A stretch of 64,000 nucleotides of DNA, taken from a gamma proteobacterium symbiont of Ctena orbiculata (GTDB lineage Bacteria > Pseudomonadota > Gammaproteobacteria > Chromatiales > Chromatiaceae). The stretch's first letter is position 1, and every line of letters begins with the position of its first letter. Location: NCBI GenBank assembly GCA_003058495.1, contig QBVC01000021.1:62001-126000 (forward strand), read 5' to 3'. This document shows positions 9,727 through 13,953 of this stretch, piece by piece. A program made the position numbers and the translations under genes. The notes under the pieces are model-generated. The model was given only the letters and a program-made list of their open reading frames with translations. It did no database searches and was not told the DNA's origin.

Positions 9727-10053
9727 TCAACTCACTTCTATATCGGCTGCCTTGTAGTAGCGCTCGCCATTTTGTCCGCTCCAGATGAAATGGAAACGCC
9801 CGCTCCGGTTGACCCTGACAAAGAACGACAGGAATGGATTGCCGGCGGTACCCGAGTCGAACTCCGCCTTGAACACCTCGGCACCGTCGAATTGACAGGC
9901 GAACTCCCCGATCAGATCTTTGGCCACGATCGCGCCATTCTGCCGGCGTCGCCAGCCGGACTCCATCGGGTGATTGAGCTTGGTCATCACCCGGATCACC
10001 TCCCCCCGCTTCGCCGTACGGGGAACTTTCACATGTACCTGCCGGTTCATCAT
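9727..10053 (-). CDS. soxZ: Thiosulfate oxidation carrier complex protein SoxZ
   Basis: VHVKVPRTAKRGEVIRVMTKLNHPMESGWRR, FFVRVNRSGRFHFIWSGQNGE; ATGA overlap with soxY stop. Confidence 0.9.
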   Translation of the reverse strand: MMNRQVHVKVPRTAKRGEVIRVMTKLNHPMESGWRRRQNGAIVAKDLIGEFACQFDGAEVFKAEFDSGTAGNPFLSFFVRVNRSGRFHFIWSGQNGERYYKAADIEVS

Positions 10054-10508
10054 CCGCACCCTCCTGTACCGCCGGTGATCTTACTCCGCCCCTTGCCCAG
10101 ATAGACGCTGCCATCACTCATTTCAGCCGCCACCACCACCACCTGGGTCTTGAGCAGACGGATGCGGGTGGAGACCTGGGCCTTGCCGTTGGCGGGGCTG
10201 AGGTGGAACGAGGCGATCTCCGGGGTCGGATTGCGTTCGGCGACCACATGGATCGCCTTGACGTAGTCGTCTTCGCTCATTGGGCTGTCCACTGAGATCC
10301 GGATGGGCACGAAGCGGCCCTGGTCGGTTACCTTGGGCAGGGTGATGCTGATCCGGCCCTTTTTCTGCTCAGCACCGCCGGTCAGTTCCGCCAGACGCTT
10401 CTTGGCGTCCCGCGGCCCTGCCTTGGCGGAACCGACCAGCCCGTTGAGCGGAAATCCCGCGGCCGCCCAGGCGCCGCATAAGATCAATAGTTGTCGCCGG
10501 TTTAACAT
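10050..10508 (-). CDS. soxY: Thiosulfate oxidation carrier protein SoxY
   Basis: Tat-like N-terminus (MLNRRQLLILCGAWAAAGFP); C-terminal TGGTGGCG swinging-arm Cys motif; adjacent to soxZ. Confidence 0.88.
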   Translation of the reverse strand: MLNRRQLLILCGAWAAAGFPLNGLVGSAKAGPRDAKKRLAELTGGAEQKKGRISITLPKVTDQGRFVPIRISVDSPMSEDDYVKAIHVVAERNPTPEIASFHLSPANGKAQVSTRIRLLKTQVVVVAAEMSDGSVYLGKGRSKITGGTGGCG

Positions 10509-10532
10509 ACTTGAGCTCCGGTTATGTCGTGG

Positions 10533-12743: not shown

Positions 12744-12825
12744 GACGATGCCACCAGTTAGTTCATCGGCGGGGGGCAGGCCATGCCCCCCGGTGAAATA
12801 CTTCTGGATCTAAGGGTCGTCCTGT

Positions 12826-13953
12826 CTAGTCTGGCGGCGTTGCCTTGGGCACACTGCCGTCCGGGTTGAAGGCGACATTGGCATCGAGGAAGTAGATTTT
12901 CAGATCATCCCGTTTCATCCGCACCAGGTCATAGGCCTCGCCGCTGCGTGCGCCGGTGGAGCAGAAGAAGACGATGGGCTTGTCCGTCGGCAGTTTATCG
13001 ACGTTATCCTCCACTTCATCCACGGTCATGATGACTGCCTTGCCAAAGGTGCCGTCCGACTCCACCTCTTCCGGATCGCGTACGTCATACCAGTGGAATT
13101 CGTCGGGATTGTCGGTTGCCAGCCTATTGAACGAGGCGATGCTGATGGTCCCCTCGTCCTCTCCCTCTTCGATCTTCGGCGCTGCTGCAGGCTTGGCTTT
13201 CGCGGTCATCTCGACGGCGTCGCCGTATGCCTTCTTCCAGGCCGGGTAACCGGCCTGAAACAGGCGTACCTTGGTGTAGCCCAAGGCAATGGCCTTGGCC
13301 GCGGACTTCGGACTCAGCGGACATTTGTAGCCACCACAGTAGAAGATCAACGGCGAATTTTTGTCCGCAGGCAACTTATCGACCATCTCATCGAACTGCC
13401 TTGCGGGGATATTGATGGCACCGGGCAGGTGACCTTTTTTGAATTTTCTCGCCGGTCGCGCATCGACGACGGTCGCTCCCTTGCTTTTGTCGATCAGCTT
13501 TTTCACGTGCTCCGCGCTGACCCCCGGAGGCAGGCTGCCGTTCTTGACCCAGTCGGGATAACCTGCCGCGTAGACCTTGACGTTGCTATACCCCAGGGCC
13601 TCGGCCTTGGCTGCCGACTTATGGCTCAGTGGGCACTTCAGGCCGCCGCAATAGAAGATCAACAGGTTGGATTTGTCCTGCGGCAGCAGGTCGGTCATCT
13701 TGTCGAACTGGCTGTTGGAGATATTGATCGCCGGAACGATATGACCCTTGTTGTACTTTCTCGCCGGTCTGGAGTCTACGATCAGCACCTCTTTCTTCGG
13801 CGGTACCGTTGCGTATTGGCCGACAAAGCCGGCATCGACTATCTCTTTGTACCACCAGTCGGGTTTTCCCTTGGCCTGGTCGGCGGCGAAAACAGGAAGG
13901 ATTGCAAATAGAGAGATTGTCGTGAAAACAATCCCTGATAGAAGGCGTTTCAT
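12826..13953 (-). CDS. Secreted protein with three rhodanese domains
   Basis: Signal peptide MKRLLSGIVFTTISLFAILPVFA; active-site loops CGGLKCPLS, CGGYKCPLS and CSTGARS; ATG at 13953 preferred. Confidence 0.88.
   Translation of the reverse strand: MKRLLSGIVFTTISLFAILPVFAADQAKGKPDWWYKEIVDAGFVGQYATVPPKKEVLIVDSRPARKYNKGHIVPAINISNSQFDKMTDLLPQDKSNLLIFYCGGLKCPLSHKSAAKAEALGYSNVKVYAAGYPDWVKNGSLPPGVSAEHVKKLIDKSKGATVVDARPARKFKKGHLPGAINIPARQFDEMVDKLPADKNSPLIFYCGGYKCPLSPKSAAKAIALGYTKVRLFQAGYPAWKKAYGDAVEMTAKAKPAAAPKIEEGEDEGTISIASFNRLATDNPDEFHWYDVRDPEEVESDGTFGKAVIMTVDEVEDNVDKLPTDKPIVFFCSTGARSGEAYDLVRMKRDDLKIYFLDANVAFNPDGSVPKATPPD

What the first reader, a model, noticed from the sequence alone, without database searches (positions are those of the whole stretch)
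9727..13953. Candidate sulfur-redox operon: triple rhodanese, octaheme OTR-cytochrome b fusion, soxY, soxZ
Four co-directional genes: the OTR-soxY gap is 24 bp and soxY/soxZ overlap by ATGA. They join sulfane-sulfur transferases, an octaheme tetrathionate-reductase-like cytochrome with its own membrane b-type module, and the SoxYZ carrier; no soxA, soxX, soxB or soxCD lies in the window. Established: SoxYZ carries sulfur as a Cys adduct, and OTR reduces tetrathionate and nitrogen oxyanions in vitro. Inference: a quinone-linked periplasmic module that reduces or oxidises SoxY-bound or polysulfane sulfur, with rhodaneses loading the carrier.
Basis: partly seen in the sequence, partly recalled or inferred. 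Interest (0 to 1): 0.82.

Follow-up and report, generated by a model that had tools for sequence, protein, structure and literature searches.

The report
Octaheme reductase with dedicated sulfur carrier
A symbiont-type sulfur bacterium carries a compact four-gene cassette, gained or lost as one unit, that pairs a membrane-anchored eight-heme reductase with its own sulfur-carrier protein and sulfur-transfer enzyme; the cluster was already reported in clam symbionts, but its build, origin and signature features are worked out further here and its job is still untested.

Summary
Four genes, rhd–otr/cytb–soxY–soxZ, lie co-directionally on the minus strand with the stated gaps. The genome is a Ca. 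Thiodiazotropha (lucinid clam symbionts). The core of the cluster is published: Sudo et al. 2024 describe "SoxY-S3" between otr and soxZ in three Thiodiazotropha species, with rhd among the plotted genes, and propose a role distinct from thiosulfate oxidation. New here: (1) all soxYZ-linked OTRs form one clade, every member with soxYZ and a triple rhodanese, mostly alphaproteobacterial with the gammaproteobacteria nested inside; (2) only the gamma members fuse OTR to a complete PhsC-like cytochrome b; (3) linked SoxYs end in GGCG-COOH, not GGCGG, with the carrier Cys kept; (4) the cassette is a unit: a close relative lacks exactly window 9709–14273; (5) a residue next to the Lys heme ligand, Asp in most OTRs, is Lys in 7 of 9 clade members; (6) betaproteobacteria pair the same rhodanese with another OTR clade plus a YeeE-type sulfur transporter. 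Best reading: a quinol-fed periplasmic reductase of S–S/thiosulfonate bonds (tetrathionate, or its adduct on SoxY) with a dedicated SoxYZ carrier. No function was tested.

The parts
12826..13953 (-). rhd: exported protein of three rhodanese domains; Cys loops CGGLKCPLS, CGGYKCPLS and CSTGARSG
   Evidence: PF00581, 3 stretches, 142.7 bits; Cys loops; N-terminal signal-like sequence read directly
12744..12825 (-). 82-bp rhd-otr gap with a strong stem-loop (GGGGGGCA/UGCCCCCC), no T-run
   Evidence: alignment and folds in four genomes; a stem is present in all, with different sequences
10533..12743 (-). otr-cytb: octaheme tetrathionate-reductase-family cytochrome (residues about 42-479, 8 CXXCH) fused through a membrane helix (about 487-514) to a PhsC-like cytochrome b (about 526-722)
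   Evidence: TIGR04315 571.6 bits, PF01292 79 bits; 1SP3 match; His 540/573/683/697 invariant or nearly so; helices in the model, heme domain low confidence
12168..12179 (-). OTR residues K189 to K192: K192 aligns with 1SP3 Lys153 (heme ligand, from memory of the 1SP3 paper); K189 aligns with 1SP3 Asp150
   Evidence: alignment: position 150 is K in 7 of 9 soxYZ-linked OTRs, D in 59 of 72 others; DNA coordinates derived from residue numbers
10050..10508 (-). soxY: SoxY-S3-type carrier with an RR-containing signal and C-terminal arm KITGGTGGCG-COOH
   Evidence: PF13501 106 bits; NCBIfam best TIGR04487, below cut-off; arm compared
9727..10053 (-). soxZ partner subunit (ATGA overlap with soxY)
   Evidence: PF08770 69.7 bits
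9709..14273 (.). extent of the cassette missing as one piece from close relatives (empty site between ispB and the Gly-Met-rich gene)
   Evidence: blastn against G165 and G595 loci; tblastn
14281..15249 (-). ispB-like polyprenyl synthetase: conserved flank
   Evidence: PF00348; present in 22 of 22 genus genomes
8376..8452 (-). tRNA-Pro(CGG): conserved other flank; lies next to ispB in several relatives without the cassette

Best explanation
The four genes encode one periplasmic sulfur-reducing cassette. The fused cytochrome b takes electrons from the quinol pool and feeds the octaheme domain. At the Lys-ligated heme the octaheme domain cuts S-S bonds of the thiosulfonate/polythionate type: tetrathionate itself, or the S-thiosulfonate adduct that tetrathionate forms on the SoxY cysteine. 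The dedicated SoxYZ carries the sulfur as an arm-Cys adduct to and from OTR, and the triple rhodanese moves sulfane sulfur between thiosulfate, persulfide and the carrier. Shown: gene content, linkage, clade-wide conservation, unit-like presence/absence, retained carrier Cys, rhodanese Cys, heme-ligand Lys and b-heme His. Inferred: direction, substrate, and physical OTR-SoxYZ contact.
For: One OTR clade (SH-aLRT 99) holds every soxYZ-linked OTR and no unlinked one. Triple rhodanese is present in all 10 loci, one of them by a fragment at a contig end. The four genes co-diverge (pairwise identities r 0.90-0.97; expected of genes inherited together) and are absent as one block in close relatives. 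The carrier Cys is kept in a distinct arm (GGCG or GACG in 119 of 120 top homologs). N61, C64 and K153 (1SP3 numbering) are kept. The cytochrome b half is PhsC-like with the b-heme His. A purified relative, BOGUAY_2386, reduces tetrathionate and nitrite (PMC6449678). Tetrathionate forms thiosulfonate adducts on the Cys of Paracoccus SoxYZ (PMC5336275). Another OTR clade sits with the same triple rhodanese and a YeeE-type sulfur transporter, an independent sulfur link.
Against: No expression, activity or interaction data. OTR-family members also reduce nitrite and hydroxylamine. Two alphaproteobacterial loci (L015, L059) show no cytochrome b nearby, so the quinol link is not universal in the clade. 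The Asp150 change is not fixed (K 7, A 1, D 1) and its role rests on memory of the 1SP3 paper. The host lineage is sulfur-oxidising, so an oxidative use cannot be excluded.
Confidence: 0.45

Rival explanations
1. Oxidative module: OTR acts as a sulfane dehydrogenase, stripping electrons from SoxY-bound sulfane sulfur and passing them to quinone through cytochrome b, taking the place of the missing SoxCD.
For: SoxC is absent from this genome while SoxA, SoxB and a canonical SoxYZ are present; the host lineage oxidises sulfur; SoxYZ in known systems works oxidatively.
Against: Known OTR activities are reductive (PMC6449678); the PhsC-type cytochrome b belongs to a reductase family; lack of SoxCD is general in these symbionts (PMC11237559) while this cassette is in 3 of 22 genus genomes, so it is no general SoxCD substitute; OTR with cytochrome b but without soxYZ is the common arrangement.
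Confidence: 0.2
2. Plain tetrathionate reductase: OTR-b reduces free tetrathionate to thiosulfate, and SoxYZ plus rhodanese only process the thiosulfate afterwards, without docking on OTR.
For: Known OTR chemistry; two-electron tetrathionate reduction gives thiosulfate, a rhodanese and Sox substrate.
Against: A canonical SoxYZ already exists for thiosulfate, yet a dedicated one with a distinct arm is conserved with this OTR clade.
Confidence: 0.2
3. Nitrogen enzyme: OTR-b reduces nitrite or hydroxylamine to ammonium; SoxYZ and rhodanese protect or regenerate it, or simply share regulation.
For: OTR of S. oneidensis and BOGUAY_2386 reduce nitrite (PMC6449678).
Against: No nitrogen gene is in the cassette; three sulfur genes are retained across the clade; the genome has three other full OTRs that could do the nitrogen chemistry.
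Confidence: 0.15

Closest known systems
SoxY-S3 / otr / soxZ island of Ca. Thiodiazotropha (Sudo et al. 2024, mSystems, PMC11237559)
   Same: Same genes in the same order (otr, soxY, soxZ; rhd in the figure legend), same genus, same conclusion that it is distinct from canonical thiosulfate oxidation.
   Different: The main text does not mention the cytochrome b fusion, the triple rhodanese, the one-clade linkage with alphaproteobacteria, the GGCG end or the empty sites (supplements and figures could not be read).
Octaheme tetrathionate reductase of Shewanella oneidensis (1SP3) and Beggiatoaceae BOGUAY_2386
   Same: Eight CXXCH; conserved N61, C64 and K153 (1SP3 numbering); 1SP3 match E 5e-113.
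   Different: Fused to a PhsC-like cytochrome b, linked to soxYZ and rhd, Asp150 position is Lys; the Shewanella loci here have no adjacent cytochrome b.
Sox thiosulfate-oxidation carrier SoxYZ
   Same: SoxY and SoxZ families, RR-containing signal, swinging-arm Cys.
   Different: Arm ends GGCG (Cys second-last) rather than GGCGG; below the true-SoxY cut-off (103 of 125 bits); no soxA or soxB next to it.
PhsC, cytochrome b of thiosulfate reductase
   Same: C-terminal half matches PRK15006 (108 bits) and keeps b-heme His.
   Different: Covalently fused to OTR; below the PhsC cut-off; no PhsAB molybdoenzyme in the cassette.

Membership tests
Octaheme tetrathionate reductase family (TIGR04315) | score above curated cut-off and eight CXXCH motifs | tested here: met
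   571.6 bits against 375; 8 motifs
Octaheme tetrathionate reductase family (TIGR04315) | Lys heme ligand (K153 in 1SP3) and N61/C64 conserved | tested here: met
   that K153 is the ligand is from the 1SP3 paper as remembered
Octaheme tetrathionate reductase family (TIGR04315) | tetrathionate reductase activity | not testable with these tools
   needs purified protein
True thiosulfate-oxidation SoxY (TIGR04488) | score above cut-off and C-terminal GGCGG arm | tested here: not met
   103.3 of 125 bits; ends GGCG
SoxY-related AACIE-arm protein (TIGR04487) | score above cut-off and AACIE-type arm | tested here: not met
   134 of 172 bits; arm differs
SoxY domain family (PF13501) | score above gathering cut-off, carrier Cys near the C-terminus | tested here: met
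   106.4 bits against 28.4; Cys151 of 152
SoxY-S3 island of Sudo et al. 2024 | soxY downstream of otr and upstream of soxZ, in Thiodiazotropha | tested here: met
   Ca. T. endolucinida, named in the paper, has the same cassette (L007)
SoxY-S3 island of Sudo et al. 2024 | S3 swinging-arm sequence signature | not tested
   the signature is in a figure that is not held; T. endolucinida has the GGCG arm here
Thiosulfate reductase cytochrome b PhsC (PRK15006) | score above equivalog cut-off | tested here: not met
   108.2 of 204 bits; may work like it, not a member
Sox thiosulfate-oxidation operon | soxA and soxB with soxYZ | tested here: not met
   soxA and soxB on other contigs; canonical SoxYZ on C34

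The most novel reading that the evidence does not exclude
OTR-b and SoxYZ form a new kind of carrier-bound sulfur respiration: the enzyme's true substrate is not free tetrathionate but the thiosulfonate or polysulfane adduct on a dedicated SoxY whose arm (GGCG) was reshaped to reach the octaheme active site, so the Sox carrier is used in the reductive direction.
Probability: 0.25. Interest if true: 0.85.

Novelty: new variant of a known kind. Interest (0 to 1): 0.52.

Why it matters
OTR's physiological substrate is unsettled because it reduces several compounds in vitro. A clade in which it is tied to a dedicated SoxYZ and a sulfurtransferase is a direct genetic clue that, at least there, it works on carrier-bound or polythionate sulfur. 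If so, SoxYZ would serve reductive as well as oxidative chemistry. The patchy, cassette-like inheritance in clam symbionts also makes it a candidate for an accessory electron-accepting trait that separates closely related symbiont species.

Tried and rejected
Chance juxtaposition in one genome: rejected by recurrence in two classes and by the unit-like empty sites. Dead SoxY: rejected, the Cys is in all top homologs. Cytochrome b fusion as an assembly or frameshift artefact: rejected, several independent genomes and contigs have it. AlphaFold model of the fusion: cytochrome b part usable, heme domain poor (mean pLDDT 60), so no fold search was run. Methylophaga thiooxydans paper: reports no OTR in that strain, no help. 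Paper searches for OTR active-site residues found no held text. Absence of soxYZ near other OTRs is limited by short contigs in some loci.

Full report
WHAT IS THERE. The four genes exist as described, all on the minus strand: rhd 12826–13953, otr-cytb 10533–12743, soxY 10050–10508 and soxZ 9727–10053, with gaps of 82 and 24 bp and an ATGA overlap. The first gene has three rhodanese domains with Cys loops CGGLKCPLS, CGGYKCPLS and CSTGARSG. The second is a full octaheme tetrathionate-reductase-family protein (TIGR04315, 571.6 bits, eight CXXCH) that matches the solved Shewanella enzyme 1SP3 at E 5e-113 and continues into a PhsC-like cytochrome b. In 53 aligned cytochrome b sequences His 540, 573 and 683 are invariant and His 697 is in 52, as expected for two b hemes. 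An AlphaFold model shows a linker membrane helix (487–514) and four further long helices with fair confidence, but the heme domain is poorly modelled. SoxY and SoxZ pass their Pfam cut-offs.

WHOSE GENOME. The window lies on contig C24 of a 4.5-Mb genome. The closest loci are the Ctena orbiculata symbiont (OTR 90–93% identical) and Ca. Thiodiazotropha endolucinida (85%); genomes G176 and G008 of the same genus have contigs of the same lengths as those two records. So it is a Ca. Thiodiazotropha species. The genome has SoxA, SoxB, a canonical SoxYZ ending GGCGG, two further SoxY-domain genes of fused-gene length, and no SoxC.

PRIOR ART. Sudo et al. 2024 (PMC11237559) sorted SoxY of symbiotic sulfur oxidisers into signatures and placed SoxY-S3 in clade 3, in Ca. 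T. endolucinida, CTENA1 and CTENA2. They state that soxY-S3 lies downstream of otr and upstream of soxZ, list rhd among the plotted genes, and propose a role distinct from canonical thiosulfate oxidation. The cluster as such is therefore known. Their main text does not mention a cytochrome b fusion (no occurrence of 'cytochrome b').

NEIGHBOURHOOD SURVEY. A scan of one genome per GTDB species returned 80 OTR loci. soxY and soxZ homologs lie next to OTR in eight of them: two Thiodiazotropha-type symbionts, one unassigned proteobacterium, four Rhodospirillales and one Afifella. In a maximum-likelihood tree of 81 OTR domains these eight plus the window form one clade (SH-aLRT 99) with no unlinked member. 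The gammaproteobacterial members are nested among alphaproteobacterial ones (supports 81–92 on the inner branches, 100 for the fused group), which suggests transfer from alpha to gamma. A tenth member was found in another genus of the same family (G115). All ten have the triple rhodanese; in L006 it is seen only as a 35-residue fragment at the contig end. In the alphaproteobacteria the order is otr–soxY–soxZ–rhd, with a separate cytochrome b in two loci; the fusion, and rhd placed first, are seen only in the gamma-type members. Pairwise identities of the four proteins across members correlate at 0.90–0.97, as expected for genes inherited together. Limits: some contigs are short, so absence of soxYZ elsewhere is not always certain.

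HOW RARE. With a profile of the linked SoxYs, 4 of 197 genomes of the family score above 250 bits and the rest 59 or less; of 399 genomes across the phylum only the window's own exceeds 144 bits. In the genus, 3 of 22 genomes carry this OTR, although most carry other OTRs.

A UNIT THAT COMES AND GOES. In five relatives tested ispB is followed within about 80 bp by tRNA-Pro(CGG). In G165 and G595 a Gly-Met-rich gene lies between them, as in the window, but the cassette is missing: aligned flanks stop at window 9708 (G165) or 9679 (G595) and resume at 14274, so the missing block is 9709–14273 in G165, the four genes and little else. The same cassette sits at the same place in G008 and G176. On an ispB tree the carriers are not one group: G008's nearest relatives G120 and G098 lack it. 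Either one gain and repeated loss, or exchange between species, explains this; one gene tree cannot decide.

A DISTINCT CARRIER ARM. All linked SoxYs end in G-G-C-G, and of the 120 best homologs in the protein database 109 end GGCG and 10 GACG, none GGCGG. The canonical SoxYs printed end GGCGG, while another group has AAC- or SAC-type arms. The carrier Cys is thus kept, with one residue after it instead of two.

ACTIVE SITE. By alignment to 1SP3, N61, C64 and K153 are kept in all nine linked OTRs of the tree; position 150 is Lys in seven, Ala in one and Asp in one, against Asp in 59 of 72 others. That K153 is the unusual heme ligand and that these residues line the pocket is from my knowledge of the 1SP3 paper; no held text confirmed it. 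The change would make the pocket more positive, which would suit an anionic or protein-bound substrate; this is inference.

INDEPENDENT SULFUR LINK. In betaproteobacterial-type loci L023 and L051 a different OTR clade (with separate cytochrome b) lies with a small cytochrome c-like protein, a YeeE/YedE-type sulfur transporter (PF04143 in L023) and a triple rhodanese 48–50% identical to the window's; L028 has the transporter and the cytochrome but no rhodanese. So rhodanese and OTR travel together also without soxYZ.

HOW IT MOST LIKELY WORKS. Established by others: OTR-family enzymes reduce tetrathionate and nitrite in vitro (PMC6449678); tetrathionate forms a thiosulfonate adduct, and disulfide dimers, on the SoxY Cys of Paracoccus (PMC5336275); PhsC passes quinol electrons to a sulfur reductase (general knowledge). 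Put together, the cassette is best read as a quinol-fed reductase of S–S bonds of the thiosulfonate type, with a private carrier and a private sulfurtransferase (confidence 0.45). The direction and substrate are inferred. Rivals are an oxidative sulfane dehydrogenase (0.2), a plain tetrathionate reductase whose product is handled by SoxYZ (0.2) and a nitrite enzyme (0.15).

VERDICT. Real and non-random; core already reported; the new details make the function testable. I rate it a new variant of a known kind, interest 0.52.

Noticed in passing
G000:C2:106868-108238, C4:39834-41204, C3:76399-77769 (L092, L093, L094): The same genome has three more full OTRs, each with a separate cytochrome b and different neighbours: C3 with an ArrA/PhsA-type molybdoenzyme, Fe-S protein and TorD-like chaperone; C2 with ExtKL-like and HAO-like multiheme cytochromes; C4 with no obvious partner.
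   Followed up: partly
window 8919-9671 (+): Exported-looking Gly-Met-rich, collagen-like repeat protein convergent with soxZ; the repeat number differs among relatives and it was found at this site only in part of the genus.
   Followed up: partly
window 12744-12825: Strong stem-loop without a T-run between rhd and otr, present in four genomes with changed but still pairing stem sequences; may tune rhd versus otr expression.
   Followed up: partly
window 8376-14281: The ispB to tRNA-Pro(CGG) interval looks like an insertion hot spot in the genus: empty, with one gene, or with this cassette.
   Followed up: partly
L131, L134-L137, L140-L142, L144, L146, L148: SoxY homologs with AACTEE, SACTE or AACVIG arms lie beside soxZ in several proteobacterial genomes; another divergent carrier group.
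   Followed up: no
L023, L028, L051: Betaproteobacterial-type cluster of OTR, cytochrome b, small cytochrome, YeeE-type transporter and (two of three) triple rhodanese.
   Followed up: partly
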